Below, piece after piece: positions 12,709 to 41,348 of a stretch of 59,999 nucleotides of DNA. The DNA lies in assembly GCA_030612725.1 (NCBI GenBank), contig JAUWNJ010000018.1, forward strand, positions 1 to 59,999, read 5' to 3'. Below the pieces are notes generated by a model. That model ran no database searches. It saw nothing but the letters and a program-made list of their open reading frames with translations, and was not told the DNA's origin. The translations under genes and the position numbers were made by a program. Position 1 is the stretch's first letter. Each line of letters begins with the position of its first letter. This DNA is from Planctomycetales bacterium. GTDB lineage: Bacteria; Planctomycetota; Phycisphaerae; SM23-33.

Positions 12709-12741
12709 AAAAGCAAAGCCGCTCCAGATCATTGAAGCGGC
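12709..12741 (-). terminator. Intrinsic terminator of the thiC riboswitch
   Basis: Read on the minus strand: gccgct, a 12-nt loop, agcggc, then tttgctttt, located between the TPP aptamer and thiC. This fits an expression platform that stops transcription when the aptamer binds ligand. Confidence 0.7.
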
Positions 12742-12779
12742 CGGTGAGCATCTTGCTTGGTCAAACACGCGCCGACTCG

Positions 12780-12868: not shown

Positions 12869-12905
12869 ACATCTTCTTATAAACAACAATTTTATAAACA
12901 ACAAC

Positions 12906-12993
12906 AAATTTCACCGCAGAGATCGCAGAGAAAAGAAACAAAAAAGTTTTTTCATCTGTTCTCTGCTGTCTCTGCGCACTTTGCGGTGAATTT
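12906..12993. repeat. Imperfect inverted repeat after the lipoprotein gene
   Basis: Left aatttcaccgcagag...cgcagag and right ctctgc...tttgcggtgaattt face each other across an A/T-rich centre. It lies just beyond the stop codon of the minus-strand lipoprotein gene and upstream of the thiC riboswitch. It is one of many low-complexity dyads occupying 3' spacers in this window; a terminator role is inferred. Confidence 0.7.
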
Positions 12994-13014
12994 CTCTTTT
13001 TGTATACTCTTATT

Positions 13015-13746: not shown

Positions 13747-13766
13747 TTTCGCCATGCTCCTGCATG

Positions 13767-13843
13767 CTGGTGGTACAGGTTTTCAACCTGTACGTCTAAT
13801 TATCGGACAAAGCGAACAGGTTAAAAACCTGTTCCACCACCAC
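13767..13843. repeat. Compound inverted repeat between lipoprotein gene and tRNA-Arg
   Basis: Two small dyads, tacaggttttcaacctgta and aacaggttaaaaacctgtt, are themselves inside a larger dyad whose ends are ctggtggt and ccaccaccac. It lies upstream of the lipoprotein gene and downstream of the minus-strand tRNA. Confidence 0.7.
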
Positions 13844-13848
13844 TACAC

Positions 13849-26553: not shown

Positions 26554-26580
26554 TTGCACTTGATACCATCTGCGTATAAA
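26554..26580 (+). promoter_or_regulatory. Possible promoter of the ROK-headed locus
   Basis: TTGCAC (26554-26559) and TATAAA (26575-26580; or TAAAGT at 26577 with a 17-nt spacer), about 40 nt upstream of the ROK start. It is the only plausible promoter in front of a 14.7-kb run of co-directional genes. Confidence 0.45.
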
Positions 26581-26620
26581 GTACCATGTTGGCGAGTTGA
26601 CTTGTTACGGTTTTTATATT

Positions 26621-27805
26621 ATGCCCTCCAAAAAAGCGCAAATACTCGAGCATATTTGGAATTATCCCGGTGATTACCGCAAGGGAATCGCTTCGGTCAT
26701 GGGGTTTAATCCTAATATGGTATCAGACACGGTTCGCGAGTTGGTTTCTGAAGGGTGGGTCGCCGAAGGTCAGCCTGAAACGGGCAGGACCGGGCGCGCT
26801 CCGATTCCACTTTATTTTGATCGGGAAAAACATCTTGTCCTGTCCGTCAGTTACGAGCAGCGCGGGATAAAATTCGCCTTGGTAAACGCCGCCGGTGAAA
26901 TCATCCGCCAGACCGATTCCTCCGGCGCGCCTGACGATCCTGAAGACCTCGTGGAGGCGATCCTCCAGGCCAAAGATAGTCTTACCGAAGGTATTTCGGG
27001 ACGACTTATCGGTATCGGCGTATCTGATCCGGGCATGGTCGAATGCGACAGCGGTCAAATCGTCCGTTCGAGCCTTTTCCCGGACTGGCATAACGTTCCC
27101 CTAGGCCGGCTTCTTGAAGAGAGAACGTTCCTTACGGTTATCGTCGAGACCAGTTCAAGGACTCGCGCATTCGGCCAGTATCGAATGATGCCCAAACTTA
27201 TGCAAACGGGCGCCTCTATGCTCTACCTTGATTACGGCGAGGGGATCGGCTTCGCCCTGGTTACCTCCGACGGGATTTGGCGAGGATTGGGTTTTGCCGG
27301 CGAGATCGGACACGTCGTCATTGAGCGGGATGGGCCTCTTTGCGGATGCGGAGCGCGGGGTTGCCTGGAGGTTCTGTCGAATACACTGGCGCTGGAGACG
27401 AAGGCCGCCGAGTTGCTGGCGCAGGGAATCAACTCGATTATTCAGTGCAGGTCAAACCCCCCGGCTGAGGAAATCTTCCAGGCCGCCCTGGACGGCGACC
27501 GCATGGCGCGAGGCCTGGTCGATGAAATCGCTTCTCATCTCGGACTGGCCGTTGCTTTCCTGGTGGCTGCTTTTCATCCGAAATACTTTGTCGTCGGGGC
27601 CGAATCCGCCGCGACAATTACGTGCCTTTGCAGACGGGCAACCGCCGCCGTCCACGACAGGACACTCCCGGAGATTGCCTCGTCTATCGAAATACTTGAA
27701 GGTAGAGAATTTCAGTCGCTGGCATTATCCGGCGCGGCAATGATGGTTTTTCAGAAAATCATCACAACCGAGGAAACAGTCAACGTTTGTGAAAAGGCCG
27801 AATAG
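26621..27805 (+). CDS. ROK-family transcriptional regulator
   Basis: About 394 aa. An N-terminal winged-helix segment (HIWNYPGDYRKGIASVMG, NMVSDTVRELVSEGWV) precedes a ROK sugar-kinase-like domain with the zinc and ROK signature GHVVIERDGPLCGCGARGCLE (shown in part: GHVVIERDGPLCGCG). NagC/XylR/Mlc-type members bind a sugar or sugar phosphate and repress or activate adjacent genes. ATG 26621 is used; the frame opens at a TTG eight codons earlier. It precedes the oxidoreductase gene by 17 nt and probably controls the locus. Confidence 0.88.
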   Translation: MPSKKAQILEHIWNYPGDYRKGIASVMGFNPNMVSDTVRELVSEGWVAEGQPETGRTGRAPIPLYFDREKHLVLSVSYEQRGIKFALVNAAGEIIRQTDSSGAPDDPEDLVEAILQAKDSLTEGISGRLIGIGVSDPGMVECDSGQIVRSSLFPDWHNVPLGRLLEERTFLTVIVETSSRTRAFGQYRMMPKLMQTGASMLYLDYGEGIGFALVTSDGIWRGLGFAGEIGHVVIERDGPLCGCGARGCLEVLSNTLALETKAAELLAQGINSIIQCRSNPPAEEIFQAALDGDRMARGLVDEIASHLGLAVAFLVAAFHPKYFVVGAESAATITCLCRRATAAVHDRTLPEIASSIEILEGREFQSLALSGAAMMVFQKIITTEETVNVCEKAE

Positions 27806-27822
27806 ATAAAGGAGACAAGACA

Positions 27823-28881
27823 ATGGACAAGATTCGCTGGGGCGTTATCGGTTGCGGCGGGATTGCCGCGAGGCGCACAATCCCCGAATTCAAGCAGATG
27901 GTCTCCAATGCGGAGATTGTCTCGGTAATGGACATTTCGGCCGACAGAGCAAAGCAGGTCGCGGAGCAGTTCGACATTCCGCACTTCTGCGACACCGAAG
28001 AAGAGTTGCTAGCCCGCGACATCGACGCGGTTTATATCGCCACGCCGCAGAACGTTCACGCCTCGCAAACCATCCAGGCCGCCGAGGCGGGCAAGCACAT
28101 CCTCTGCGAGAAGCCCATCGCAATTACCGTCGAGGAAGTGGCCCGGATGGAAGACGCCTGCAAAAAGGCGGGCGTGAAATTCATGCTCGCGTGGTGCATG
28201 AGGCAGAACGTCTATAACAAGAAGGCGCGCGAACTGGTTCTCTCCGGCGATTTGGGGCGAATCGTTATGGGAAGGGCGCAGTTGACCTGCTGGTATCCGC
28301 CCATCCCCAACGCATGGAGGCAGGATGTTTCCATAAGCCACGGCGGGGCGCTTTTGGACATGGGCACGCACTGCCTCGATATGCTCGAATGGATAATGGA
28401 CGCGAAAATCGTCGAAGTTACCGGATTCCAGGACCTCCTGGTGCAGAAGTACCGCACGCAAATTGAAGATACTTCGACCATCGTCGTGCGTTTCAGCAAC
28501 GGCGCGCACGGGATTATCGACAATTATTTCAACATACCCGACGCCGCCGCCAGAAACAGCCTGGAAATTTTCGGGACCAAGGGTTCGATTATCGCGCACG
28601 GCACGATCGGACAAGACCCGACCGGAAACATGTTCAGCATCACCCAGCCTGACGAGACCGGATACAACGCCGACCAGGTCCGCGACGTCGAGGCGAATCG
28701 CCAGGAATACGACTTCGAAGGGGTCGGTATTTACGGGCAGATGATTACGATTTTCAGCGATTGCATACTACAGGACCAGGCCCCGCCGACAAACTTTGCC
28801 GACGGAAGACATTCAGTCAGGCTCGTCGATGCGATATATAAATCCGTCGCCGAAAAACGAGTGGTTCAGGTTGAGGAATAA
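27823..28881 (+). CDS. Gfo/Idh/MocA-family oxidoreductase
   Basis: A 352-aa NAD(P)-dependent dehydrogenase. Rossmann motif GVIGCGGIAARR at the N-terminus, the family signature CEKPIAITVEEV (about 95-106; catalytic Lys), and a C-terminal alpha/beta domain with GGALLDMGTHCLDMLEW bearing the usual Asp and His. Such enzymes oxidise a ring hydroxyl of sugars or cyclitols to a keto group. The ribosome site is aaaggaga. The DegT aminotransferase starts 3 nt after its stop, implying sequential keto formation and transamination, or the reverse. Confidence 0.92.
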   Translation: MDKIRWGVIGCGGIAARRTIPEFKQMVSNAEIVSVMDISADRAKQVAEQFDIPHFCDTEEELLARDIDAVYIATPQNVHASQTIQAAEAGKHILCEKPIAITVEEVARMEDACKKAGVKFMLAWCMRQNVYNKKARELVLSGDLGRIVMGRAQLTCWYPPIPNAWRQDVSISHGGALLDMGTHCLDMLEWIMDAKIVEVTGFQDLLVQKYRTQIEDTSTIVVRFSNGAHGIIDNYFNIPDAAARNSLEIFGTKGSIIAHGTIGQDPTGNMFSITQPDETGYNADQVRDVEANRQEYDFEGVGIYGQMITIFSDCILQDQAPPTNFADGRHSVRLVDAIYKSVAEKRVVQVEE

Positions 28882-28884
28882 AAG

Positions 28885-30165
28885 ATGGCAAAGTTAGCAT
28901 TAAACGGTGGAAAACCGGTTCGTGAGAAGCCTTTTATCGAGTGGCCTGTTTTTGACGAGGCCGAGGAAAAGGCAATGCTGAAGGTGCTCAGAAGCGGCAA
29001 GTGGTGGCGGTTCGCCTTCGGGCAGGGCGTCGAACTGGCAGAGCCTGAAGAAGGCGAGCACAGCCAGATAGCGCTCTTCCAGAAGGAATTCGCCGAGTAT
29101 CACGAGTGCAAATACGGTATCGCAGCCGCAAACGGCACCGGGACGCTGGAGATAGGAATCCGGGCGATGAACCTGGACGTCGGCGACGAGATAATCGTCC
29201 CGGCTTACACCTACGTCGCCAGCGCAACCTGCGTGCTTCAAAATAATCTCGTTCCAATCTTCGTCGATGTGGACCCGGACACGTACAACATCGACCCCGA
29301 CAGAGTCGAGGAGGCCATTACGGACCGTACCCGCGCGATTATGGTCGTACATTTCGGCGGTCAGCCCGCGGACATGGACCGCATAACGGCCATTGCAGCC
29401 AAGCACGGCCTGGCGGTCATTGAAGACGCCGCCCACGCCCATGGCTGTGAGTGGAAGGGCAAAAAAGCCGGCTCAATGAGCCTGTTCAGTTCATTCAGTT
29501 TCCAGGCAGCGAAGAACATGACCGCCGGCGAGGGCGGTATCCTCCTGACCGACGATGAAGCCTTCGCAGCCGAGTGCGATTCCATGGTCTGGTCCGGACG
29601 CAGAATAGGCCGACCCTGGTATGAGTTTCACCGCCTCGGATGGAATTACCGCATGACGGAGTTCCAGGGCGCGATTCTGCGAGCGCAACTCAGCCGGCTT
29701 GAGGAACAGATTTTGCGGCGTGAGCGAATGGGAGATTACCTTACGACGCTGCTCAATGGACTCGACGGCGTCTCGCCGCTCGTACGAGACGAGCGCACGA
29801 CCCGCCACGGCTACCATATTTATATGTTCCGCTACGACGAGCAGGCCGTCGGCGCGCCGAAACAAAAGTTTATCGACGCGCTTGCGGCGGAGGGCGTACC
29901 GGGCTTCGGCGGATACACATTCAGCCTCTACAGGAACCCGATGTTCCTGGAAAAGAATTTCATCAACGGCGGTTTTCCGCTGGGCACGGAGTACCACGAG
30001 GACATTGACTACGCTTCGTTTGCAGCCAAATGCCCGGTCTCCGAACGCGCCTGCAACAGCGAGGCGGTCTGGCTTCCGCAGAATATCTTCCTGGGAAGCA
30101 AAGAAGATATGGATGACGTCGCAGCGGCGATTAAAAAAGTTTTGGATAATAAGGGTGAACTGTGA
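28885..30165 (+). CDS. DegT/DnrJ/EryC1/StrS-family aminotransferase (first copy)
   Basis: A 426-aa PLP-dependent sugar or cyclitol aminotransferase, somewhat longer than average. The PLP Lys lies in FSFQAAKNMTAGEGG (about 206-220); other motifs are AAANGTGTLEIGIRAM, VPAYTYVASATCVLQNN, VIEDAAHAHG and WNYRMTEFQGAIL. The enzyme swaps amino and keto groups. Paired by 3-nt spacing with the Gfo/Idh/MocA gene. A second, diverged DegT protein is encoded at 32553-33881. Confidence 0.93.
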   Translation: MAKLALNGGKPVREKPFIEWPVFDEAEEKAMLKVLRSGKWWRFAFGQGVELAEPEEGEHSQIALFQKEFAEYHECKYGIAAANGTGTLEIGIRAMNLDVGDEIIVPAYTYVASATCVLQNNLVPIFVDVDPDTYNIDPDRVEEAITDRTRAIMVVHFGGQPADMDRITAIAAKHGLAVIEDAAHAHGCEWKGKKAGSMSLFSSFSFQAAKNMTAGEGGILLTDDEAFAAECDSMVWSGRRIGRPWYEFHRLGWNYRMTEFQGAILRAQLSRLEEQILRRERMGDYLTTLLNGLDGVSPLVRDERTTRHGYHIYMFRYDEQAVGAPKQKFIDALAAEGVPGFGGYTFSLYRNPMFLEKNFINGGFPLGTEYHEDIDYASFAAKCPVSERACNSEAVWLPQNIFLGSKEDMDDVAAAIKKVLDNKGEL

Positions 30166-30214
30166 AAGACTGGTTTTCATTCCGGTGAAACATCATCTAT
30201 CAGGGAGAAATCCA

Positions 30215-31249
30215 ATGGCGACGGAAGAACGTTCCCTCGTTGAAGACGTAAAGCACAAGCAGGGTAAATACGGCGGGTTTTCCTTCGGCGGTCAGGAGCC
30301 GGACGGCGTGGTCGTTCGCAATCCTCTGCCGGCAGGGACGGTTTTTCCGAACGGGGCCACCGCTGCGCTGCTGTTGACGTTTGATGTCGAAGGCACTTAC
30401 GGCAACGGCACTGGCGACATGAGCGTTGAGATCGCCAATTATCAACGCATCTGCGACAAGTTGAAAGACAACGGTATTCCCGCGACGTTCAACGTTGTCG
30501 GCAAAATGGCTGAAGAACAAGGCCCGGAGTTCGTCGAGTGGATGCTCGACGCCGATTGTGAAGTGGTCCCTCACGGGTATATTCACGAAATGTATCAACG
30601 ATACGGCGGAGACGACGTATATGCCGGGCATTACGGCCCGGACGAAAATATCAAACAGGTTCAGGAAGGCGTCGATGCGATCAGCCGCCTGACGCACAAG
30701 GCGATTCGAGGCTTCCGTCTGCCTTACGGACACTTCAATGAATATACGTACGACGCCTTTGAACAGGCGGGATTGGCCTGGTCGAGCAACCTGGGAATCG
30801 ACGACTTTATCGCTCCGGGCCTGGGATTCGGAAACGCCCCGTTCCAGATGCAACTGGGAGAGAAGGTCTATCCGATTGTCGAAATTCCATTGGATTCACA
30901 GACGTATGATTGGGCCATCTGGATCGCCGACGAGCAGGCCAACGCCCCCTTCGTCAAGGCCGTTCGGACCTACTGCGACATGCGGAGCATACCATTTACC
31001 CGAACACCCGCCTGCGGAGTGGGCATCTGGCGACAGCGGATGCTGGACGCCATTGCCGGAAAGACGGTTTTCACGCTCATCTGCCATCCGATTAACCTGG
31101 CCGTTCGGAGCGAAGCGTGGGGCGATCCTGTTGATGAGTTCATGCTTCCGGTTATTGACCAGTTGGGGCAATTTCATCGGGACCGGCAGGCCTGGGTTTG
31201 TACTTGCGGCCAACTCGCCGATTTCTATTGGAAGACGATGCAATCGTAG
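30215..31249 (+). CDS. Polysaccharide-deacetylase (NodB-type) family hydrolase
   Basis: About 344 aa from ATG 30215 (gggaga ribosome site). Metal motifs are LLLTFDVEG (about 50-58; Asp where canonical members have TFDD) and VVPHGYIHEMYQRYG with the H-x3-H pair (about 112-126); GFRLPYGHFNEYT and CHPINLAVRSEAWG follow. This pattern fits the soluble branch of carbohydrate esterase 4-like proteins that includes HpPgdA and cyclic-imide hydrolases, not secreted chitin deacetylases: there is no signal peptide. It likely removes an acyl group or opens a cyclic amide on a small metabolite. The frame extends upstream antisense-free but overlaps DegT and is rejected there. Confidence 0.85.
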   Translation: MATEERSLVEDVKHKQGKYGGFSFGGQEPDGVVVRNPLPAGTVFPNGATAALLLTFDVEGTYGNGTGDMSVEIANYQRICDKLKDNGIPATFNVVGKMAEEQGPEFVEWMLDADCEVVPHGYIHEMYQRYGGDDVYAGHYGPDENIKQVQEGVDAISRLTHKAIRGFRLPYGHFNEYTYDAFEQAGLAWSSNLGIDDFIAPGLGFGNAPFQMQLGEKVYPIVEIPLDSQTYDWAIWIADEQANAPFVKAVRTYCDMRSIPFTRTPACGVGIWRQRMLDAIAGKTVFTLICHPINLAVRSEAWGDPVDEFMLPVIDQLGQFHRDRQAWVCTCGQLADFYWKTMQS

Positions 31250-31269
31250 ATTTTTTCAGAGGCTTTCTT

Positions 31270-32535
31270 ATGAACGCCGTTGACATCGAGACAATAAAAC
31301 GCGCCGTCCGACAGCATCAGGACGAGGCTGTCAGGCTTTTGCAGGACCTGGTCAGGATTCCTTCGGTCAATCATCCTCCCACGGGGGATGAGAAGGAAGT
31401 TCAGGAGTTTTACTTTCGTCATTTGGAATCGATGGGACTGGAATGTGAGATATTCGAGGCCGACGACGTGCCGGCCTTCAAGGAACACCCAGGCCGACTA
31501 AAAGAACACGACATGACCAATCGGCCCGACGTGGTGGGAGTTTGCAAAGGCGGCGGGACAGGGCGAAGCATCCTTCTGACCGCCCATGCCGACGTGGAAC
31601 TCCCCGGCGACCCCGCCTCGTGGAGCGACAACAATCCTTTCAGCGGCGCTGTGAGAGCCGGAAGGGTCTATGGCCGGGGCTCCGGCGATGATAAGAGCGG
31701 GATGGCGATTGCCGCCATGACGCCGAGAATACTCGAATCCGTCGGCGTCCGGCTGTGCGGCGACCTGACAATCGCTTCGGTTTCCGACGAGGAGCAGGGA
31801 GGCGCAAACGGCACGGTCGCCCTTCTGGCGAAGGGATACCGCCCCGACGCCTGTATTAACCTTGACGGATGCAATCAGGACATCTACATAGCGAATCTGG
31901 GAGGCGGCTACTGCAACATCGACATCAGGGTCGCCTCTTCCGGATTCAGTACGGAAGATCTGCTTGACTGTTTCAACCGATTCCGCGAGAGGATTGCAGA
32001 ATTCCGGAACATCAGAAAAACGGACTTTGGCGCTCACCCCTATTACGGGATCGAACCTCGCATGAGCCGGTCGGTGGCGTTTGCGAAGGTTTCTCTTGGG
32101 GTTGAAGACCTCTCACGCGGCACGTTCACCGTCTGGTTCCGTCTCTTGCCCGGCGAAGAACCGGAACCGTTCCAAAAACGTTTTACCGAATTCCTCCGGG
32201 GCGTCGTCGACTCCGGCGACTACAGTTTGCAGTGGATGCCGCGGTTCCTCCCCTCTTCCGAGATAGAGGATGGGCATCCGTTTGTGAATTGTCTGAAGGA
32301 CTCATTTACTCTAAGTACCGGCAGGGCGCCTTCAGTAAAGGGCGCCGGAATAGATGATACGGGATTTCTCAACCTGTACGGCGGATTTCCATCTATCGGC
32401 TTTGGGCCGGGCAACCTGGAAGGGGAAGGAGCGATCCACCGGGCTGATGAATTTGTTGATATTGAGAAGTTAATGGAATGTCTTGAAACCGTCGTCTTTT
32501 GCACCATGAAATGGTGCGGATACGAACGAACCTAA
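31270..32535 (+). CDS. M20-family metallohydrolase (ArgE/DapE-like)
   Basis: About 421 aa from ATG 31270. The metal-ligand pattern is LLTAHADVELPGD (His and Asp, about 105-117), GRGSGDDKSGMA (bridging Asp) and SVSDEEQGG (general base Glu and ligand Glu); the final His is probably EGAIHRADEF near the end. Such enzymes are di-zinc deacylases, dipeptidases or carbamoylases in the cytoplasm. Twenty nt follow the deacetylase gene. Confidence 0.87.
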   Translation: MNAVDIETIKRAVRQHQDEAVRLLQDLVRIPSVNHPPTGDEKEVQEFYFRHLESMGLECEIFEADDVPAFKEHPGRLKEHDMTNRPDVVGVCKGGGTGRSILLTAHADVELPGDPASWSDNNPFSGAVRAGRVYGRGSGDDKSGMAIAAMTPRILESVGVRLCGDLTIASVSDEEQGGANGTVALLAKGYRPDACINLDGCNQDIYIANLGGGYCNIDIRVASSGFSTEDLLDCFNRFRERIAEFRNIRKTDFGAHPYYGIEPRMSRSVAFAKVSLGVEDLSRGTFTVWFRLLPGEEPEPFQKRFTEFLRGVVDSGDYSLQWMPRFLPSSEIEDGHPFVNCLKDSFTLSTGRAPSVKGAGIDDTGFLNLYGGFPSIGFGPGNLEGEGAIHRADEFVDIEKLMECLETVVFCTMKWCGYERT

Positions 32536-32552
32536 ATAAAGGAGAAATTGAA

Positions 32553-33881
32553 ATGGCAAAGAAGAAAAAGAAAGCGGCTGTGGATTTCAGGTATGACACG
32601 GGAGCGGCCAAGATTCCCTGGGCGGCGGTCGGCGAACCGGTGCTGGAAGAGGACGTGGTCGAACTCGTCAAATTCCTGCTTCCGCCTCTTGACGGAAAGA
32701 AGCAGGCCTACGCGGCGCAACTGAAACGCGCGACAAGCGAAATAACCAAACTCCGCGCCTGTAGCGGAACTGCGGGCAAACTGTCTTTGAGTAAGAAGGT
32801 CGAGGAACTGGAGAAGGAGGCGGCGAAGATACTGCGGGCGAAATACGCCCTTTTCGTAACCAACGCGACGGCCGGTTTCGAAATCGCGCATAAATTCGCC
32901 GGCCTGAAGCCCGGCGACGAGGTAATCGCCCCGGCGATTACGTTTATCGCCTCAATTACGTATCCGCTGAGTATCGGGGCGAAAGTCGTGCTGGCCGACG
33001 TTGACCCGCGGACCATCAATATAGACCCCGAAGACGTCGCCAGAAAGATTACGCCCAGGACCAAGGTCATCTTCCCCGTTCACGTCGGCGGATACCCAGC
33101 CGACATGGACCCGATTATGCGTCTGGCCAGGAAGCACAATATCACGGTAATCGAAGACGCGGCACACGCCTTCGGCGGTTCGTACAAAGGCAAGATGATG
33201 GGTGCGATAGGCCACTTCGGTTCATTCAGTTTCCACGAGGTCAAGAACATCACCGCGCTGGGCGAGGGCGGCATCCTCGCTACCAACACGCCCTTCGGGA
33301 AAGATTTCGCCAAGAGCCGCTTCCTCGGAATCGACATGGGCAAACAGGTGAAGAACTGGCTCTACGACGTCGTCGCGCTGAAGAGCAAGGGCGACTGCTT
33401 CGCGCCGCCAAACCATTCCACAACCGAGATTCAGGCGATCGGTCTGCTCCAGCAGATCGGACGCCTTAAGGGCATTATCGCCAGTCGGAAAAAAGCGGCG
33501 ACGTACCTGAACAGCCGATTCAGCAAGGTCCCCGGAATCATCCCGCCGCCTCTGGGTACCGCCGAAATAAAGCCCACGTATCACCTGTACCTGCTGCAGA
33601 TCGACCCGGAGATCGTCGGCGGAGACGTCCAGACGCTGAAGAAGAAACTCTCGGCCAAGGGCGTCGTCAATATTCCGCATTATGCTCCGCTATACAAGTT
33701 CAGCATTCTGCGGCAACTCGGATACGACACCAAGGCCATAGAGAAAACCTGCCCGGTGGCTGAAAGGATGTTCCAAAAAACATTCACCCACCTGCCGTTA
33801 TACGATTTCACCAGCGAGCAGTTGAAATACCTCGCCGATGCGGTTATAGAATCGGTCAATGAGATGAAGGCCGGAAGGTGA
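32553..33881 (+). CDS. DegT/DnrJ/EryC1/StrS-family aminotransferase (second copy)
   Basis: About 442 aa, from an ATG 7 nt past aaaggag. A Lys-rich start (MAKKKKKAAVDF) and an insertion before the core (about 35-70) distinguish it from the first copy. PLP Lys in FSFHEVKNITALGEGG; also NATAGFEIAHKFAGL, APAITFIASITYPL and VIEDAAHAFGG. The two proteins are clearly diverged, so they probably act on different positions or substrates. The active-site Lys is intact. Confidence 0.92.
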   Translation: MAKKKKKAAVDFRYDTGAAKIPWAAVGEPVLEEDVVELVKFLLPPLDGKKQAYAAQLKRATSEITKLRACSGTAGKLSLSKKVEELEKEAAKILRAKYALFVTNATAGFEIAHKFAGLKPGDEVIAPAITFIASITYPLSIGAKVVLADVDPRTINIDPEDVARKITPRTKVIFPVHVGGYPADMDPIMRLARKHNITVIEDAAHAFGGSYKGKMMGAIGHFGSFSFHEVKNITALGEGGILATNTPFGKDFAKSRFLGIDMGKQVKNWLYDVVALKSKGDCFAPPNHSTTEIQAIGLLQQIGRLKGIIASRKKAATYLNSRFSKVPGIIPPPLGTAEIKPTYHLYLLQIDPEIVGGDVQTLKKKLSAKGVVNIPHYAPLYKFSILRQLGYDTKAIEKTCPVAERMFQKTFTHLPLYDFTSEQLKYLADAVIESVNEMKAGR

Positions 33882-33921
33882 ACGAATTTGAAAACGTTTT
33901 ATGCAAAAAAAGGAACATAAA

Positions 33922-34782
33922 ATGAACAAAAATATCGCAAACGATCCTTTTCCCGTAATGGAACACATGACCGTTAAAATGGTCAGGGAATACCTCACAC
34001 GCAGTAAGTCGATTATTCTGCCTATGGGTGTGATCGAGCAGCACGGATACCACCTGCCGCTGAAGACCGACACGATTCTGGCCAATCATATCGGGCGAAT
34101 GGTCGGCGAGCAGACGGGGATCATCGTAGCGCCTACGATTCATCAGTCCTTTTCGGGCGGCGACCTTCCGGGGACCATTAACATCTCCCCGGCGGTTATG
34201 TCCCTCGTGGTCCGCGACACGCTGGTGTCCTTGGCAGCCCAGGGATTCCGCAATTTCTACCTCCTGCTCTGCCACGGCGGCTCGGAGAACGCCCGGGCGC
34301 TCGACAACGCCCTCAAACTGCTGCTCCGGCTGAATCCCATGTTTGAAAACGCCTTGATCGCACTGATGCCTACCTGGAAATTCCGTCCCGACGACGACAA
34401 CTCGTTAGACGAAGGCGACTGGCACGCCGGATGGAATGAAACATCCAGGATAATGGCGCTGGAGCCGGAGTTGGTGAGAATGGACGAGTTGGAACTGGAT
34501 GCCGAGCCGCTGATGAAATTGATGGCCGAACACCCGGACAACTACCAGCGCGCCGAGAAGATCGTCGATGACGAATTCGTGGTGCCTCGCATGAGCCAGA
34601 AGCCCGACATAAAGGTCGGCGTGATGGGCCGACCAGAAAAGGCTTCACCCGAAATCGGCAGGAAACTCATCGAGGGCATCGTCAAAGGCATGTCGGATAA
34701 AGTCCTGGAATTGGAAGCAAAGGCCGACGGCGTCTATAAAGAAGTGGCTTTCACGCCCGAACCGCTGATTATCAAGAAGTAA
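33922..34782 (+). CDS. Creatininase-family amidohydrolase
   Basis: About 286 aa. Family motifs are LPMGVIEQHGYHLPLKTDT (metal Glu, His and Asp), SGGDLPGTINIS, LLLCHGGSENARAL and WHAGWNETS. Members include creatinine amidohydrolase, and enzymes cleaving cyclic or formyl amides in cofactor pathways. The ring-opening chemistry fits the neighbouring deacylase-type genes. ATG 33922 is preferred, with aagga upstream; the frame opens 7 codons earlier. Confidence 0.87.
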   Translation: MNKNIANDPFPVMEHMTVKMVREYLTRSKSIILPMGVIEQHGYHLPLKTDTILANHIGRMVGEQTGIIVAPTIHQSFSGGDLPGTINISPAVMSLVVRDTLVSLAAQGFRNFYLLLCHGGSENARALDNALKLLLRLNPMFENALIALMPTWKFRPDDDNSLDEGDWHAGWNETSRIMALEPELVRMDELELDAEPLMKLMAEHPDNYQRAEKIVDDEFVVPRMSQKPDIKVGVMGRPEKASPEIGRKLIEGIVKGMSDKVLELEAKADGVYKEVAFTPEPLIIKK

Positions 34783-34809
34783 CAAGAAAGGACAACAAAG
34801 GAACATTCT

Positions 34810-36546
34810 ATGACCAATACGGCGCAAGAACAACAGTCAGAGGGTAACGGAACGGTATTGTTGCTGGTGAACAGTTCCGACACTGATGAATTCGGCCTCG
34901 TTGACGAGACGATGTCGGCGGCGCTGGGACACCTGGGTATCCCGTATAAGGTCTGGGACCTGGACAGCGGCGCGCCGTCGGCGAAGCAGTTGCTCACCCA
35001 TCGCTGCGTGATTCTTGGTCAGGGCGGTCTGGGCAGGAAACTCGGCCAGGGCGGCGCTGAAGCACTGCGGGATGCAGTCCAGGCCGGGGTCGGACTGGTC
35101 GGTTTCGACGGCGACCTGGGCGATTACAGCGGCCCATTTGCCGAGATTTTCAGGATAAGCCCGGGCCGGAAACCGGTATCGTGTTCGCGGATTAACACAA
35201 CAAATGTGGATCACTTCATCACCGGCACGCGCGAACTGACCGACCAGGTAAAACTGACAGAAGCCGTGGAAGTCTGGCCTATCGAAAGTCCTCGCTATGG
35301 CCCGGCCGGCGGGAGCCTGCTGCAAACCTCCAGCGGCTGGCCTGTGCTGATTGCGACGACATACGGCCAGGGACGCGCGGTGTTGTTCGCAACGTCCGTC
35401 AAACTATGGACAAGGCAGGTGTTGGGTCACGCGTCGGGGCTGGATGATGTATTCTGGAAATCGGTCGTCTGGGCGGCTCGCAAGCCGTTCGCGATCTATG
35501 CAATGCCGCCCTTCGCTACGATGCTGATCGATGACTGCAGCAGTTCCTACAATCATTTCCGCTATGCAGACGTGCTGAACAAGTACGGCTGGATTCCGCA
35601 CCTGGAGGTCTATCTGGAAGACATCGACCGGGTAATGCACGAGGAAAGATATGCAGATTCGGCGAAAATAAAGGAATTGTACGACGCCGGGCTGGCGGAA
35701 TTCGGCGTCCACGGGATCACGTACACTAACCTGATGTGGTTCGACCATGGTGGACGCAAGCCGCTTTCGGATGAGCAGGTCGCCGAGAATTTCAAACGCT
35801 ACGACGCCTGTATGAAAAAGTGGCGGATTAAACCCAGCCGGTACGAGAACCCCCATTTCTCGGAAATGGGCAGAAACGCCCTGCCCTATTTGAAACAGCG
35901 CGGCGTCGAATATCTAAGCCTGAGTCTCAATTTCGACACCGCCTGGATGGATGTCCCGCACAAGAAGCCCGCTCTCAAGCCCCCCGCACCCTACCATCAC
36001 CGGGGATATTACATGGGATATCTGGCAGAAGACCCTGATTTCTTCCTCATAAGATCGAGTTTGTCGCCGTGGAGTTTCGATTCGCCGGATTATATCCCGG
36101 AGGGCGATCTTCTGTGGGACAACACGATCTTCTGGGACGAAAGCCCGTTCAACAACGTCGAAGCGGCTGCCCGGGTAGGTATCAAACAGGTCCGGCGAGG
36201 AATCGATGCCAGATTTTTCGGGAGTCTGTTCTGCCACGAGCAACGGATAGCCGTGGTTACAATGTCGGAATGGGAAGAAATTTTCAGCCGCATCCACGAT
36301 GGGCTGAAGAAGTACGATCTAATCTACCGGCCTTATGAATACATCTGCGACTACGCCCGAAGCCATCACGACACGCGGATTTCCGATGTGTCGGTGAATG
36401 ACGAGGCCGGCAAGGTGCACTGCAAACTGGAAGGGAAAACCCAACTGACGACGGCGTTGGAAATATACACCAATGACGCAGACGGCGTGCAATGCCAGTC
36501 ATGCGATGTTCCGCAATTTACCGGGGCAGTGAGTGTAGAAAGTTGA
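34810..36546 (+). CDS. Two-domain protein: amidotransferase-like + deacetylase-like (copy A)
   Basis: 578 aa. Residues about 12-230 look like a class-I glutamine-amidotransferase or ThuA-type fold (VLLLVNSSDTDEFGLVDE, GVGLVGFDGDLGDYSG, TYGQGRAVLFATSVKLW) but without an obvious nucleophile Cys elbow. Residues about 235-500 resemble a polysaccharide-deacetylase barrel: MLIDDCSSSYNHFRY (acidic pair), FGVHGITYTNLMWFDH, and YHHRGYYMG. A small beta tail ends the protein. No signal peptide. It is about 90% identical to the next gene. Confidence 0.72.
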   Translation: MTNTAQEQQSEGNGTVLLLVNSSDTDEFGLVDETMSAALGHLGIPYKVWDLDSGAPSAKQLLTHRCVILGQGGLGRKLGQGGAEALRDAVQAGVGLVGFDGDLGDYSGPFAEIFRISPGRKPVSCSRINTTNVDHFITGTRELTDQVKLTEAVEVWPIESPRYGPAGGSLLQTSSGWPVLIATTYGQGRAVLFATSVKLWTRQVLGHASGLDDVFWKSVVWAARKPFAIYAMPPFATMLIDDCSSSYNHFRYADVLNKYGWIPHLEVYLEDIDRVMHEERYADSAKIKELYDAGLAEFGVHGITYTNLMWFDHGGRKPLSDEQVAENFKRYDACMKKWRIKPSRYENPHFSEMGRNALPYLKQRGVEYLSLSLNFDTAWMDVPHKKPALKPPAPYHHRGYYMGYLAEDPDFFLIRSSLSPWSFDSPDYIPEGDLLWDNTIFWDESPFNNVEAAARVGIKQVRRGIDARFFGSLFCHEQRIAVVTMSEWEEIFSRIHDGLKKYDLIYRPYEYICDYARSHHDTRISDVSVNDEAGKVHCKLEGKTQLTTALEIYTNDADGVQCQSCDVPQFTGAVSVES

Positions 36547-36624
36547 TGCGTTAAGCAGTTTCGTGAAAATGTTCCATACTGAACTTCCGCAAAAGGGCTG
36601 ATTTTGACAGAAGAGCGTTGATCA

Positions 36625-38361
36625 ATGAATAACAAAGCACAAGAACAACAGGCAGAGGGTAACGGGACGGTATTGCTGCTGGTGAACAGTTCCAACGCTG
36701 ATGAATTCGGACTCGTTGACGAGACGATGTCGGCGGCGTTGGGACATATGGGTATCCCGTATAAGGTCTGGGACCTGGACGGCGGCGCGCCTTCGGCGAA
36801 GCAGTTGCTCACCCATCGCTGCGTGATCCTGGGTCAGGACGGTCTTGGCAGGAAACTCGGCCAGGGCGGCGCTGAAGCACTGCGGGATGCAGTCCAGGCC
36901 GGGGTCGGACTGGTCGGTTTCGACGGCGACCTGAGCGATTACAGCGGCCCATTTGCCGAGATTTTCAAGATAAGCCCGGGCCGGAAACCGTTATCGTGTT
37001 CGCGGATTAACACAACGAACGTGGAGCACTTCATCACCGGCACGCGAGAACTTACCGACCAGGTAAAACTGACAGAAGCCGTTGAAGTCTGGCCTATCGA
37101 AAGTCCTCGCTATGGCCCGGCCAGCGGGAGCCTGCTGCAAACATCCAGCGGCTGGCCTGTGTTGATTGCGACGACATACGGCCAGGGACGCGCGGTGTTG
37201 TTCGCAACGTCCGTCAAACTATGGACAAGGCAGGTGTTGGGTCACGCGTCGGGGCTGGATGATGTATTCTGGAAATCCATCGTCTGGGCGGCGCGCAAGC
37301 CGTTCGCGATCTATGCAATGCCGCCCTTCGCGACGGCCCTGGTGGATGATTGCAGCGCGTCCTACAATCATTTCCGCTATGCCGACGTGATGAACAAGTT
37401 TGGCTGGATTCCGCACCTGGAGGTCTATCTGGAAGACATCGACCGAGTAATGCACGAGGAAAGATATGCAGATTCGGCGAAAATAAAGGAATTGTACGAC
37501 GCCGGGCTGGCGACATTCGGCGTCCACGGGATCACGTACACCAACCTGATGTGGTTCGATCACGAGGGACGCAAGCCGCTTTCGGATGAGCAGGTCGCCG
37601 AGAATTTCAAACGCTACGACGCATGTATGAAGAAGTGGGGCATCAGCCCCAGCCGGTTTGAAAACCACCATTTTGGAGAGATGGGTAGTAACGCGCTGCC
37701 GTACTTGAAGGAGCGAGGCATTGAATATCTGAGCATGGTCCTTAACTTCGATACAGCCTGGATGGACGTTCCGCACAAAAAACCCGCTTTCAAGCCCCCC
37801 GCACCCTACCATCACCGGGGATACTACATGGATTACCTGGAAAACGATCCTGATTTCTTCATTATGAGATCGTACCTGGAGCCGTGGAGTTTTGATTCTC
37901 CAGAGGCAGCCGCGGAGGTCGATTTCCTGTGGGACAACACGATTTTCTGGGATGAAAGCCCGTTCAACAACGCCGAAGCAGCAGCACGGGTGGGTATCAA
38001 ACAGGTCCGGCGGGGAATCGACGCCAGATTTTTCGGGGTTCTGGTATGTCACGAACAGCGGATAGCCGTTGTTTCCATGTCGGAATGGGACGAAATTTTC
38101 AGCCGCATCCACGACGGGCTGAAAAAGTACGATCTAATCTACCGTCCGTTCGAATACATCTGCGACTACGCCCGAAGCCATCACGACACGCGGATTTCCG
38201 ATGTGTCGGTGAACGACGAGGCCGGCAAGGTGCACTGCAAACTGGAAGGGAAAACCCAACTGGCGACGGCGTTGGAAATATACACCAATGACGCAGACGG
38301 CGTGCAATGCCGCTCGTGCGATGTCCCGCAATTCGCCGGGACAGCGAGCGTGGATGACTGA
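36625..38361 (+). CDS. Two-domain protein: amidotransferase-like + deacetylase-like (copy B)
   Basis: 578 aa, same length as copy A with no gap needed. Differences cluster in the deacetylase-like half (about residues 345-445: GISPSRFENHHFGEMGSN, DYLENDPDFFIMRSYLEP, EAAAEVDFLWD), while long stretches around 175-240 and 270-300 are nearly identical even at DNA level. This suggests recent tandem duplication with gene conversion of the flanks, or selection on a specificity region. The 78-nt spacer between the copies is not duplicated. Confidence 0.72.
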   Translation: MNNKAQEQQAEGNGTVLLLVNSSNADEFGLVDETMSAALGHMGIPYKVWDLDGGAPSAKQLLTHRCVILGQDGLGRKLGQGGAEALRDAVQAGVGLVGFDGDLSDYSGPFAEIFKISPGRKPLSCSRINTTNVEHFITGTRELTDQVKLTEAVEVWPIESPRYGPASGSLLQTSSGWPVLIATTYGQGRAVLFATSVKLWTRQVLGHASGLDDVFWKSIVWAARKPFAIYAMPPFATALVDDCSASYNHFRYADVMNKFGWIPHLEVYLEDIDRVMHEERYADSAKIKELYDAGLATFGVHGITYTNLMWFDHEGRKPLSDEQVAENFKRYDACMKKWGISPSRFENHHFGEMGSNALPYLKERGIEYLSMVLNFDTAWMDVPHKKPAFKPPAPYHHRGYYMDYLENDPDFFIMRSYLEPWSFDSPEAAAEVDFLWDNTIFWDESPFNNAEAAARVGIKQVRRGIDARFFGVLVCHEQRIAVVSMSEWDEIFSRIHDGLKKYDLIYRPFEYICDYARSHHDTRISDVSVNDEAGKVHCKLEGKTQLATALEIYTNDADGVQCRSCDVPQFAGTASVDD

Positions 38362-38389
38362 TCGCGTCGTTTAGAATAGGATAAACATC

Positions 38390-39130
38390 ATGCGAACGAA
38401 CGTTATTGATTCGGCTGTGCGTTTGCCGGCAAAAGACGGCAGGATAGAGGTTGACGACTGGTTCGCCCTGGCTGAGCGATGGGGAATTTCGCACACCGTA
38501 GCATCGCCGCCGGACGAGTTCGTCGCCGTCTATAACGACGAAGGAAACGCCCTGATGGCCGATCTGGTGGAGCAATATCCGAACCGGCTTTCGGGCCTGG
38601 CTGTGGCGAACCCGTGGTACGGGAAAAAGGCGGTCGATTCGCTCAAGAAGGCGTTCGAGCGAGGCTTGTGCGGCCTGTATCTTCACCCGCCTCGTCAGGG
38701 TTTCCAATTGGCTGAGTCCGTTCTCGATCCGCTCATCGAGGTGTGCATGGAGTATGACAAGGCGATTTACGCCCACACCGGCACGCCCATCTGCGCGATG
38801 CCGTTCCAACTGGCTGAACTTGCCCGGCGATTCGGCGAAGCGACCTTCGTAATGGGGCACATGGGCTGGAGCGATTTTGCCGGCTACGACGCGATTCCCG
38901 CCGCTCAACAGTCGCCAAACATCCTTCTGGACACCTCCTATACGACCACCGGTCTGGTCAAAGGCGCTATTGACGCTATCGGCGTCGATCGCGTCCTGTT
39001 CGGTACGGGCTATCCGCAGTCCCGCCCCGGACCTGAATTTGAAAAACTCAAACCGCTGAACCTGCCGGACGATATTTTCAACAAGTACGCCAACGAAAAC
39101 GCAAGGCGAGTATGGAGAATCAAGACATGA
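38390..39130 (+). CDS. Amidohydrolase-2-family protein with altered metal site
   Basis: A 246-aa TIM barrel. GLYLHPPRQGFQL (about 93-105), IYAHTGTPICAMP (about 121-133) and VMGHMGWSDFAGYD (about 149-162) match the second, third and fourth catalytic strands. The usual first-strand HxH is replaced (VIDSAVRLPAKD), and the usual FGSDyP at the last strand reads FGTGYPQS, with Gly replacing the catalytic Asp. It may be inactive or metal-independent. It overlaps the next, intact-looking amidohydrolase by ATGA, so a heterodimer is conceivable. Confidence 0.8.
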   Translation: MRTNVIDSAVRLPAKDGRIEVDDWFALAERWGISHTVASPPDEFVAVYNDEGNALMADLVEQYPNRLSGLAVANPWYGKKAVDSLKKAFERGLCGLYLHPPRQGFQLAESVLDPLIEVCMEYDKAIYAHTGTPICAMPFQLAELARRFGEATFVMGHMGWSDFAGYDAIPAAQQSPNILLDTSYTTTGLVKGAIDAIGVDRVLFGTGYPQSRPGPEFEKLKPLNLPDDIFNKYANENARRVWRIKT

Positions 39131-39867
39131 AGGTCATCGACAGCCATACCCATTTCCCGGGGACGTCTTTCGGCGCTCATCCCAGGAGCGGCGACGAGAT
39201 TCGCGAGGAGTTCGAGTCCGCCGGACTCTGCGGCGCGTGGATTATGACGACCGACGGCCTGCGGGGCGAACCGGCCCGGAACAATGACCTGCTGGCTGAA
39301 GGGATTAAAGACCACCTGGATTTCTTCGTACCGTTCTGCACCGTCTGGCCTAACGAGGAAACAGACGCCACTCTGAGCGAACTCGAACGTTCCGTTCGCG
39401 ACTTGGGAATGAGGGGGCTGAAACTCCATCCCTGGTTACAGGCCTTTTCGCTGACGCACCCTGCCGTCCTGCCGATACTCAAAAAGGCGGGCGAACTCGG
39501 TCTGCCGGTCCTCTTCCACGACGGGACCCCGCCTTACTGCACGCCGCTCCAGATAGCAGCGGCCGCCGAAAAAGTCCCGGAAACGACCATTATCCTTGGC
39601 CACTCCGGCATAAACGACCTTTACAAAGACGCCATCCTGGCATGCCACCGCCATCGGAATATCCATCTTTGTCTCTGCTCGCAAAAGGCCGGCTGCATAC
39701 AGGAATTCATCCGGCAATGCCCTGCCGAGAGGCTGCTCTTCGGAACGGACGCCGGGTTCGGGGATAATCTGATAAAACCGGCAATAACCGGGTATCTTGA
39801 CCTGGGCGTTTCAGATGAGATACTGAACAAAATCTTCTACGAGAACGCCAAGGCGCTCCTGCCATGA
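39127..39867 (+). CDS. Amidohydrolase-2-family protein (complete metal site)
   Basis: About 246 aa from the ATG overlapping the previous stop codon. It keeps VIDSHTHFPG (HxH), GLKLHPWLQAF, VLFHDGTPPY, ILGHSGIND and FGTDAGFGDN (catalytic Asp). Family members hydrolyse lactones, amides or decarboxylate. Its pairing with the upstream degenerate homologue and the ATGA overlap with the following acetyltransferase gene indicate a tight three-gene translational unit. Confidence 0.85.
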   Translation: MKVIDSHTHFPGTSFGAHPRSGDEIREEFESAGLCGAWIMTTDGLRGEPARNNDLLAEGIKDHLDFFVPFCTVWPNEETDATLSELERSVRDLGMRGLKLHPWLQAFSLTHPAVLPILKKAGELGLPVLFHDGTPPYCTPLQIAAAAEKVPETTIILGHSGINDLYKDAILACHRHRNIHLCLCSQKAGCIQEFIRQCPAERLLFGTDAGFGDNLIKPAITGYLDLGVSDEILNKIFYENAKALLP

Positions 39868-41348
39868 CGCGGACAGTTAAGAAAACCGACATTATTTCCG
39901 GGCTGAAAAGGCTGGGGCTGACCGGCGGCGACCATGTATTCGTGCACGCCGCTCTCAGCAGCCTCGGCAGTGTCGCCGGCGGGGCAGATACGGTCATCGA
40001 CGCCCTGCTCCAGGTCGTCGGGCCTGACGGAACGGTCGTCGTTCCCGCCTTTGAAAGCGACGATGAGGTCTTCGACACCGGAAAGAGCCAAACCCATCTG
40101 GGCGCTCTCCCGCAGGCGTTCTGGAAACGCAAAGACGCCTTTCGCAGCCGACACCCGCTGGCGTCGGTAGCCGCGATCGGCGCTAAGGCTGAATGGCTTA
40201 TCAAAGACCACGTGGAGGCGAAAACCGCCCACGGCAAGGGCACGCCTTATTACAGACTCTGCGAACTCGGCGGAAAGATACTGCTGCTCGGCGTCGATCT
40301 GGACCGCTGCACTTTTCTTCACACCGCCGAGACGCTGGCCCACTCGCCATACCTCAGGCCGACGAAGGGCAGTTTTATTGATTCGACGGGAAAGACGCGG
40401 ACCAAAACCTGGCCCCTGTTCGCCGGGCCTCATCGGAACTTCATAGGTCTGCAAAAATGGCTGGATCAAATCGGCCTGATGCGGAAAACCACGATAGGTT
40501 CCTGCGTCGCCCGGTCGATGCCGTGCAGGGAACTGCTGGAAACATTGTTGGAGCGCCTGAAAACCGAGCCGTCGCTTTTTATTACCGACAACCCGTCCCT
40601 GCCGGACGGCGTGTGGCAAAAGGCCGACGTCCTGCGGGCGCAATGGCGACGGTGCTCGTTTCGGCTCGCAGCCGACAGCCGATTCGCAGGCCGATACATC
40701 GAGGAAATCATCGACAACCTCACGCACTTCGGCATTGAGAACGTGGTGCTTTCCTGCGTGAACGACACGCCGTGGAACCGCATCGAACGGGACAAGCGGA
40801 AGTGGTATCTGCGGGGGCTGCGAATGGCGAAGATCAAGCCGGTGGCGATCAGGCTTCCCGTTCTCGCCCCTGAAGAAACGGCAGGCCTGCTCAAGGAGGC
40901 CGGGGCCAAGACGCTTATCGTCCCATCGACCTGCCGGGTCGAATCCATAGCTCGCCTCGCTAAAAATGGTTTCAACGTGCTCGTGGAGAATACGTCCATC
41001 GGCGGCGAACGCCTGGCCGATATGCTCGAAAGCCTTCCGCGAAAAGCATCAGGAAACGTCAAACTTGCGTTCAACCCGTTGGCCTTCGCCCAAGTCGGCG
41101 AGAATCCGTTCTTGCAGACATATCACACCCGAATCAGGCGGCACATAGGTCTGCTGTACATAAACGACGGCCTGGCGTCGGGGCGGCGCACAGCGCTGGA
41201 GGAAGGCCTGTCCGAAATCAAGGAACTCATATCAATCCTCTGCTGCAAGTGCTTCGCCGGTCTATTCGTGTTACAGCCGTCGATGCCTCCCGATTTTGCG
41301 CAAACCGTTCTCAAATTCAAGGATATGCTTAGGGAAATCGGTGTATAG
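39864..41348 (+). CDS. AAC(3)-like N-acetyltransferase fused to a TIM-barrel-like domain
   Basis: 494 aa. Residues about 5-260 match the aminoglycoside 3-N-acetyltransferase fold: VFVHAALSSLGSVAGG, TVVVPAFE, SRHPLASVAAIG, GKGTPYYRLCELGGKILLLG and TFLHTAE with the conserved His and Glu. Residues about 265-494 form an alpha/beta repeat domain (EEIIDNLTHFGIENVVLS, VAIRLPVLAPEETAGLLKE) resembling a xylose-isomerase-like barrel. The fusion is unusual. The context suggests acetyl-CoA-dependent N-acylation of an aminated ring metabolite, not antibiotic resistance. Last gene of the locus. Confidence 0.8.
   Translation: MTRTVKKTDIISGLKRLGLTGGDHVFVHAALSSLGSVAGGADTVIDALLQVVGPDGTVVVPAFESDDEVFDTGKSQTHLGALPQAFWKRKDAFRSRHPLASVAAIGAKAEWLIKDHVEAKTAHGKGTPYYRLCELGGKILLLGVDLDRCTFLHTAETLAHSPYLRPTKGSFIDSTGKTRTKTWPLFAGPHRNFIGLQKWLDQIGLMRKTTIGSCVARSMPCRELLETLLERLKTEPSLFITDNPSLPDGVWQKADVLRAQWRRCSFRLAADSRFAGRYIEEIIDNLTHFGIENVVLSCVNDTPWNRIERDKRKWYLRGLRMAKIKPVAIRLPVLAPEETAGLLKEAGAKTLIVPSTCRVESIARLAKNGFNVLVENTSIGGERLADMLESLPRKASGNVKLAFNPLAFAQVGENPFLQTYHTRIRRHIGLLYINDGLASGRRTALEEGLSEIKELISILCCKCFAGLFVLQPSMPPDFAQTVLKFKDMLREIGV

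What the first reader, a model, noticed from the sequence alone, without database searches (positions are those of the whole stretch)
26554..41348. Twelve-gene ROK-controlled locus of C-N chemistry: candidate undescribed amino-sugar, aminocyclitol or cyclic-amide pathway
All genes share one strand with short gaps or ATGA overlaps. Seen classes: ROK regulator, Gfo/Idh/MocA dehydrogenase 3 nt before a DegT aminotransferase, NodB-type deacylase, M20 hydrolase, second DegT, creatininase homologue, two 578-aa two-domain proteins, two amidohydrolases, AAC(3)-like acetyltransferase fusion. Known family chemistry: keto formation plus transamination (as in inosamine or amino-sugar pathways), deacylation, ring opening and N-acetylation. 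Inference: one coordinated pathway on an aminated ring compound. No transporter or glycoside hydrolase is present, so import and polymer breakdown must be encoded elsewhere, or the pathway is biosynthetic.
Basis: partly seen in the sequence, partly recalled or inferred. Interest (0 to 1): 0.8.

Follow-up and report, generated by a model that had tools for sequence, protein, structure and literature searches.

The report
Mosaic aminocyclitol or amino-sugar gene cluster
A planctomycete bacterium carries twelve genes in a row whose enzymes can put nitrogen onto, and take acyl groups off, a sugar-like compound; the core enzymes occur together in distant relatives too, so this looks like a real but undescribed metabolic pathway whose substrate is still unknown.

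Summary
In detail: twelve co-directional genes (26621-41348) of the named classes, with gaps of at most 78 nt. Comparison with relatives supports one functional unit, but a mosaic one. A core of Gfo/Idh dehydrogenase, two DegT aminotransferases and a creatininase-family hydrolase is found together, at 62-73% identity, in two other families of the class. Among 248 genomes of the class these orthologues occur only in the same few genomes. The core enzymes keep their catalytic residues, and all 12 genes are under purifying selection. NodB, M20, AAC(3), amidohydrolase and 578-aa genes are exchangeable; the 578-aa proteins were found only in this genus. The ROK regulator has been exchanged: the same slot in the other families holds a different ROK (25-27% identity). 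DegT1's nearest solved relatives are 2-deoxy-scyllo-inosose aminotransferase and AHBA synthase, which favours a free cyclic ketone over a nucleotide sugar. No cyclitol synthase, nucleotide-sugar enzyme or glycosyltransferase is in the locus; relatives add a small EamA transporter and a GH-like protein. Best reading: ROK-regulated, probably assimilatory handling of an aminated or N-acylated cyclitol or sugar. Substrate and direction are not shown. A new combination of known families.

The parts
26554..26580 (+). Candidate single promoter (TTGCAC, 15 nt, TATAAA) just upstream of the ROK gene
   Evidence: Read from sequence; kept between window and G001, not clearly in G002. The consensus scan finds no excess of promoters in the locus, so this is weak evidence.
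26621..27805 (+). ROK-family repressor (HTH plus ROK sensor domain, CxCGxxGCxE zinc motif kept); first gene
   Evidence: PF00480 E 5.6e-35; a different, non-orthologous ROK fills the slot in other families
27823..28881 (+). Gfo/Idh/MocA dehydrogenase, core gene; EKP and GGxxxDxGxH motifs kept
   Evidence: PF01408 E 8.4e-32; 69-77% identity across three families; best NCBIfam inositol 2-dehydrogenase but 175 bits against cut-off 355
28885..30165 (+). DegT1, PLP aminotransferase of the cyclitol/AHBA kind (K210, D181 kept); core gene
   Evidence: PF01041 E 8.3e-97; profile hits 5w70 263.7 bits and 1b9h 256.3 bits over full length
30215..31249 (+). NodB-like deacylase (exchangeable module)
   Evidence: PF01522 E 2.4e-15; 55% identical homologue next to Gfo, DegT and ROK in G237
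31270..32535 (+). M20 ArgE/DapE-like deacylase (exchangeable module)
   Evidence: PF01546 E 6.3e-20; M20 next to an AAC(3) gene in G002 and G053
32553..33881 (+). DegT2, second PLP aminotransferase (K231, D202 kept); core gene, strongest constraint (dN/dS 0.054)
   Evidence: PF01041 E 2e-77
33922..34782 (+). Creatininase-family metal amidohydrolase; core gene; E39, H41, D50, H118, E122, H168, E173 invariant
   Evidence: PF02633 E 8.6e-53; alignment A7
34810..36546 (+). 578-aa protein a: N part of unknown fold, diverged polysaccharide-deacetylase-like middle; genus-restricted
   Evidence: Sub-threshold PF01522; structure model of no use (pLDDT 34)
36625..38361 (+). 578-aa protein b, tandem copy (90% identical); both copies also in G001, one copy in G002
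38390..39130 (+). Amh1, Amidohydro_2 family but HxH and catalytic Asp lost in all four species: probable non-catalytic partner of Amh2
   Evidence: PF04909 E 1.1e-25; alignment
39112..39867 (+). Amh2, Amidohydro_2-like with HxH and Asp kept
   Evidence: Homologous to Amh1 (about 33% identity over 150 aa)
39864..41348 (+). AAC(3)-type N-acetyltransferase (TxxHxAE motif: T150, H153, E156 invariant) fused to a diverged xylose-isomerase-like TIM barrel
   Evidence: PF02522 E 2.2e-51; PF01261 E 0.0035 on the C part; two-domain relatives in five other lineages

Best explanation
The locus is a regulated small-molecule pathway acting on an un-nucleotidylated, aminated or N-acylated cyclitol or sugar. 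Proposed working: an ROK repressor senses the substrate or an early product and releases one promoter. The Gfo/Idh enzyme oxidises a ring hydroxyl to a ketone. DegT1 (cyclitol/AHBA-type) and DegT2 exchange ketone and amine at ring positions, with glutamine or glutamate as partner. AAC(3) and the NodB and M20 deacylases put on and remove an N-acyl group, as a protecting or priming step. The creatininase-family enzyme and Amh2 hydrolyse an amide, lactam or lactone near the end. The core (Gfo, DegT2, creatininase, usually DegT1) is fixed; NodB, M20, AAC(3), epimerase, Gfo2, amidohydrolase and 578-aa genes are add-on modules that adapt it to different acyl groups or conjugates. Direction is more likely assimilatory (breakdown) than biosynthetic. 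Shown by computation: gene content, core conservation and linkage, intact catalytic motifs, purifying selection, DegT1's nearest relatives. Inferred: substrate class, order of steps, direction, role of the ROK protein.
For: Core co-occurrence: in 248 class genomes, creatininase orthologues of at least 62% are in G000, G001, G002, G025, G044, G053, G246, DegT2 of at least 66% in the same set (G001 partial), DegT1 of at least 69% in the same set with G003 in place of G044. Outside the genus two independent 4-genome sets would coincide with probability about 7e-9. They lie on one contig within about 14 kb where the contig allows. Gfo is 69-77% identical across the three families. AAC(3) next to M20 in G002 and G053. 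AAC(3)-TIM fusion beside creatininase, cyclase and DegT behind a divergent ROK gene in G367:C60, outside the class. DegT1 profile ranks 2-deoxy-scyllo-inosose aminotransferases and AHBA synthase first, over the full length. Catalytic residues kept (motif of the AAC(3) family from PMC8956665). dN/dS 0.05-0.32. For breakdown: ROK regulator, several hydrolases, GHL10-like and EamA genes inside related clusters, NagB-like gene beside the AAC(3) fusion in G062, no cyclitol synthase, NDP-sugar enzyme or glycosyltransferase in the locus.
Against: DegT1's solved relatives are biosynthetic enzymes. The 578-aa proteins have no assignable chemistry. The AAC(3) fusion also stands alone in G263 and G305 and in G002 lies on another contig with a different upstream gene, so it may have its own role. 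The G044 cluster lacks DegT1. No transporter lies in the window's cluster. Curated family cut-offs are missed by every enzyme, so no substrate can be read from annotation. The relatives are fragmented MAGs and no expression data exist.
Confidence: 0.5

Rival explanations
1. Biosynthesis: the cluster makes an aminocyclitol, diamino sugar or related secondary metabolite from inositol or a free sugar made elsewhere. Gfo and DegT1 install one amine, and DegT2 a second; AAC(3) protects and M20 or NodB deprotects, in the manner of the arginine and diaminopimelate pathways.
For: DegT1 is closest to aminocyclitol and AHBA aminotransferases. Inositol dehydrogenase plus aminotransferase making an aminocyclitol is proposed for hygromycin A: Hyg17 is shown to be a myo-inositol dehydrogenase and Hyg8 is the proposed aminotransferase (PMC10949010). 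AAC(3) lies next to M20 in two families. Related clusters in G053 and G246 have further Gfo genes.
Against: No cyclitol synthase, kinase, phosphatase, glycosyltransferase, peptide synthetase or exporter in the window's locus. Many hydrolases. An ROK regulator is typical of sugar-responsive uptake and breakdown genes (general knowledge).
Confidence: 0.28
2. Breakdown of a cyclic amide or imide (creatinine-like or hydantoin-like compounds) by the creatininase homologue, the NodB/PuuE-like and the amidohydrolase enzymes.
For: A creatininase-family hydrolase is in the core, and cyclase-family hydrolases occur in G003 and G367; creatininases act on cyclic amides, though one homologue is a formamidase (PMC9478397).
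Against: Creatininase equivalog model 103 bits against cut-off 235; no creatinase or sarcosine enzyme in the locus; two DegT aminotransferases and a sugar-type dehydrogenase are not needed for such a pathway.
Confidence: 0.06
3. Aminoglycoside resistance or detoxification island centred on the AAC(3) gene.
For: AAC(3) fold and catalytic motif kept.
Against: Resistance equivalog cut-offs not met (143.7 against 270 bits); YokD, FrbF and BA2930 of the same family do not act on aminoglycosides (PMC8956665); the core of the cluster occurs without it (G044 and G246 contigs).
Confidence: 0.05
4. Chance neighbourhood of unrelated genes on one strand.
For: Gfo-DegT neighbours are very common (15,139 DegT occurrences near Gfo-family sequences, PMC10949010), and this genome has about eleven DegT genes.
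Against: The same orthologues are linked in three families and absent from nearly all other genomes sampled; conserved order in the genus.
Confidence: 0.03

Closest known systems
Aminocyclitol branch of the hygromycin A and 2-deoxystreptamine pathways (dehydrogenase plus DegT-type cyclitol aminotransferase)
   Same: Gfo-type dehydrogenase beside a DegT enzyme whose closest solved relatives are 2-deoxy-scyllo-inosose aminotransferase and AHBA synthase
   Different: No cyclitol synthase, glycosyltransferase or assembly genes in the locus; creatininase-family, M20, NodB and amidohydrolase genes added; ROK regulator
Thermotoga-type inositol catabolism (IolG/IolM dehydrogenases, IolN creatininase-family hydrolase, IolO epimerase)
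   Same: Gfo dehydrogenase plus creatininase-family hydrolase; a TIM-barrel epimerase-like gene before DegT1 in G003 and G025
   Different: All scores far below the family cut-offs; aminotransferases present
Rhizopine (scyllo-inosamine) metabolism, moc/mos genes
   Same: Idea of a Gfo (MocA-type) enzyme plus a DegT-type aminotransferase on an inosamine (general knowledge)
   Different: No rhizobial gene set seen; not tested by direct comparison
Antibiotic_NAT family (AAC(3), YokD, FrbF)
   Same: Fold and TxxHxAE motif of the N domain of the last gene
   Different: Fused to a diverged xylose-isomerase-like TIM barrel; below resistance cut-offs

Membership tests
Aminocyclitol biosynthesis cluster (2-deoxystreptamine / hygromycin A type) | Cyclitol aminotransferase of the DegT (StrS/AHBA) kind with PLP lysine | tested here: met
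   By sequence: profile ranks 5w70 and 1b9h first over full length; K210 and D181 invariant
Aminocyclitol biosynthesis cluster (2-deoxystreptamine / hygromycin A type) | Cyclitol synthase (2-deoxy-scyllo-inosose or inositol phosphate synthase) in the cluster | tested here: not met
   None among the twelve genes or the neighbouring genes scanned; the rest of the genome was not searched
Aminocyclitol biosynthesis cluster (2-deoxystreptamine / hygromycin A type) | Activity of DegT1 on a keto-cyclitol | not testable with these tools
   Needs purified enzyme
Inositol catabolism of Thermotoga type (IolG, IolN, IolO) | Curated family scores of dehydrogenase, hydrolase and epimerase | tested here: not met
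   IolG 175 of 355 bits, IolN 61 of 245 bits, IolO 36 of 300 bits for the G003 gene
Creatininase family (PF02633) | Pfam cut-off and metal/catalytic residues | tested here: met
   179.6 bits against 31.3; E39, H41, D50, H118, E122, H168, E173 invariant in eight sequences
True creatininase (creatinine degradation) | Equivalog score, and creatinase/sarcosine genes nearby | tested here: not met
   103.3 bits against 235; no such genes in the locus
Nucleotide-amino-sugar pathway (PseC, ArnB, WecE type) | Curated aminotransferase score plus NDP-sugar enzymes | tested here: not met
   Best PseC 211 of 423.5 bits; no nucleotidyltransferase, dehydratase or glycosyltransferase among the genes
AAC(3) aminoglycoside resistance enzyme | Antibiotic_NAT fold with TxxHxAE motif | tested here: met
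   175 bits against 25; T150, H153, E156 invariant; motif from PMC8956665
AAC(3) aminoglycoside resistance enzyme | Curated resistance-family cut-off | tested here: not met
   143.7 against 270 bits for AAC_3
Rhizopine (moc/mos) catabolism | Orthologues of MocA, MocB, MocC and MosB | not tested
   No reference sequences were compared

The most novel reading that the evidence does not exclude
An undescribed pathway type, spread in Planctomycetota as a mosaic of exchangeable modules, in which free aminocyclitols or amino sugars from the environment are processed by Gfo oxidation, two DegT aminotransferases and transient N-acetylation by AAC(3)-family enzymes, ending in cleavage by a creatininase-family hydrolase. 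It would give AAC(3)-type enzymes, known mostly from antibiotic resistance, a natural role in amino-sugar metabolism.
Probability: 0.2. Interest if true: 0.7.

Novelty: new variant of a known kind. Interest (0 to 1): 0.45.

Why it matters
DegT, Gfo, creatininase and AAC(3) family genes are numerous in these bacteria and mostly unassigned. A core that is linked across families but rare in the class gives a small, testable set of enzymes for finding one substrate. If the AAC(3) part acts in amino-sugar metabolism, it would bear on where aminoglycoside acetyltransferases come from.

Tried and rejected
Structure prediction of the 578-aa protein from five sequences gave pLDDT 34, so no fold search was run. 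Profile comparison of the 578-aa family with the 594/597-aa proteins that sit in the related clusters of G053 and G246 gave no significant match (E 0.5 and 0.08), so a common origin is not claimed. A shared ROK operator: no palindrome is common to the upstream regions of six clusters. Consensus promoters and terminators in the locus are no more frequent than in shuffles. Literature searches for creatininase plus DegT plus Planctomycetes clusters and for DegT in amino-sugar breakdown found nothing relevant. Creatinine degradation, Thermotoga-type inositol breakdown and NDP-amino-sugar synthesis were tested against curated cut-offs and not met.
Full report
What is there. Between 26621 and 41348 lie twelve genes on the + strand with gaps of -19 to 78 nt. 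Pfam places ROK, Gfo/Idh/MocA, DegT (twice), polysaccharide deacetylase, M20, creatininase, Amidohydro_2 and Antibiotic_NAT. Curated NCBIfam cut-offs are missed by every enzyme, so none can be given a named reaction. Amh2 was not scanned against Pfam; it is homologous to Amh1.

Conservation in the genus. G001 (L015, L092) and G002 (L022/L016, L083) keep the order, broken only by contig ends: ROK-Gfo-DegT1-NodB-M20-DegT2-creatininase-578-Amh1-Amh2 (NodB and M20 are seen in G002 only). G002 has an extra single-domain AAC(3) gene between NodB and M20 and only one 578-aa gene; its AAC(3) fusion is on another contig with another upstream gene. G003 has a xylose-isomerase-like gene between Gfo and DegT1, and Gfo2-Amh1-Amh2-AAC(3) fusion-cyclase on a second contig. 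dN/dS is 0.05 to 0.32 for all twelve genes.

Core and modules. The same 248 genomes of the class were searched with DegT1, DegT2 and the creatininase. Orthologues separate from paralogues: DegT1 at least 70% against 50% and less; creatininase at least 63% against 42%; DegT2 at least 66% against 54%. They sit in the same genomes: G000, G001, G002, G025 (another genus of the family), G053 and G246 (other families), with G003 for DegT1 and G044 for the other two. Read-out of the contigs: G025 epimerase-DegT1-DegT2-creatininase-Gfo2; G053 ROK-Gfo-DegT1-590aa-creatininase-GHL10/GH42M-EamA-M20-AAC(3)-Gfo3-DegT2-592aa; G246 ROK-Gfo-DegT1-594aa-creatininase-EamA-Gfo2-597aa-Gfo3-DegT2; G044 ROK-Gfo-creatininase-Gfo-DegT2. 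So Gfo, DegT2 and creatininase are the constant part, DegT1 nearly so, and NodB, M20, AAC(3), epimerase, Gfo2, amidohydrolases and the 578-aa proteins are modules. The 578-aa family was found only in this genus (60 relatives, where one further weak partial match of 8e-5 in G041 was not pursued; 84,980-species collection, two hits of the genus). A looser relative of the arrangement lies outside the class: G367:C60 has a divergent ROK gene, then creatininase (39%)-cyclase-AAC(3) fusion-DegT. G237:C83, in the window's class, has a divergent ROK gene, then DegT (63% to that of G367)-NodB (55%)-Gfo.

Regulator. ROK proteins of G053, G246 and G044 are 48-56% identical to each other but 25-27% to the window's, whereas the enzymes are 62-77% identical over the same comparison. 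The slot is kept; the regulator has been exchanged or has diverged far faster. The 'ROK-controlled' label is thus positional; no operator was found.

Chemistry. DegT1: the profile of six orthologues ranks 2-deoxy-scyllo-inosose aminotransferase 5w70 (263.7 bits), AHBA synthase (256 bits), and the further 2-deoxy-scyllo-inosose aminotransferases 5w71 and 2c7t (236, 235 bits) above perosamine synthetase (228 bits, partial cover). DegT2 does not discriminate. PLP lysine and aspartate are invariant in both. Gfo keeps EKP and GGxxxDxGxH. The creatininase homologue keeps E39, H41, D50, H118, E122, H168 and E173. AAC(3) keeps TxxHxAE, the catalytic motif described in PMC8956665. Amh1 reads DSAVRLP and FGTGYP where Amh2 reads DSHTHFP and FGTDAG, in all species with the relevant part, so it is probably a non-catalytic partner. 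The AAC(3)-TIM fusion is a family of its own with members in G062, G035, G367, G263 and G305; it neighbours a cyclase-family hydrolase in G003, G035 and G367 and a NagB-like and amidohydrolase gene in G062.

Interpretation. A Gfo plus DegT pair is common (PMC10949010) and by itself proves little; what carries weight here is the linkage of four specific orthologues across families. The best reading is a regulated pathway on an un-nucleotidylated aminated or N-acylated cyclitol or sugar. The assimilatory direction is favoured by hydrolases, by GH-like and EamA genes in relatives and by the absence of cyclitol-synthase and NDP-sugar genes; the biosynthetic direction is favoured by DegT1's relatives and by the AAC(3)-M20 pair, which recalls acyl protection in arginine and diaminopimelate synthesis (general knowledge). 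I put these at about 0.5 and 0.28. Neither substrate nor direction is shown.

Limits. The relatives are mostly fragmented MAGs, so absence of a gene on a contig is weak evidence. Only a sample of the class and phylum was searched. Identity cut-offs for orthologues were set after seeing the gap in the results. The chance estimate of about 7e-9 treats genomes as independent, which they are not.

Noticed in passing
L022:1084-1884 (G002): Extra single-domain AAC(3) gene inserted between NodB and M20 in a sister species, closest to the AAC(3) of the G053 cluster (36%).
   Followed up: partly
window 38390-39130: Amh1 is a conserved degenerate amidohydrolase: HxH and catalytic Asp lost in four species, next to an intact paralogue.
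   Followed up: yes
window 34810-38361: Tandem pair of 578-aa genes, 90% identical, in G000 and G001 but single in G002; both copies kept under purifying selection (dN/dS 0.19 between copies).
   Followed up: yes
L090:7951-9735 and 12054-13847; L088:8298-10076: Two families of 590-597 aa proteins without a Pfam assignment over cut-off sit inside the related clusters of G053 and G246.
   Followed up: partly
L093:98-2077 (G062): NagB-like protein and amidohydrolase directly upstream of an AAC(3)-TIM fusion gene.
   Followed up: partly
G000:C34:15902-17776: Another Gfo plus xylose-isomerase-like gene pair outside the locus, kept in G001, G002 and G246 (C33).
   Followed up: no
L137:3432-4205 (G000:C57): A further AAC(3) gene outside the locus, 53% identical to the AAC(3) of the G053 cluster.
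   Followed up: no
G000:C53:24085-26296: Two adjacent DegT genes; about eleven strong DegT matches in this 3.16-Mb genome.
   Followed up: no
window 21347-22726: 459-aa protein upstream of the locus without any Pfam match.
   Followed up: no
L134:2468-4101 (G053:C63): Single-domain AAC(3) gene divergent from a xylose-isomerase-like gene: the two domain types of the fusion as separate neighbours.
   Followed up: no
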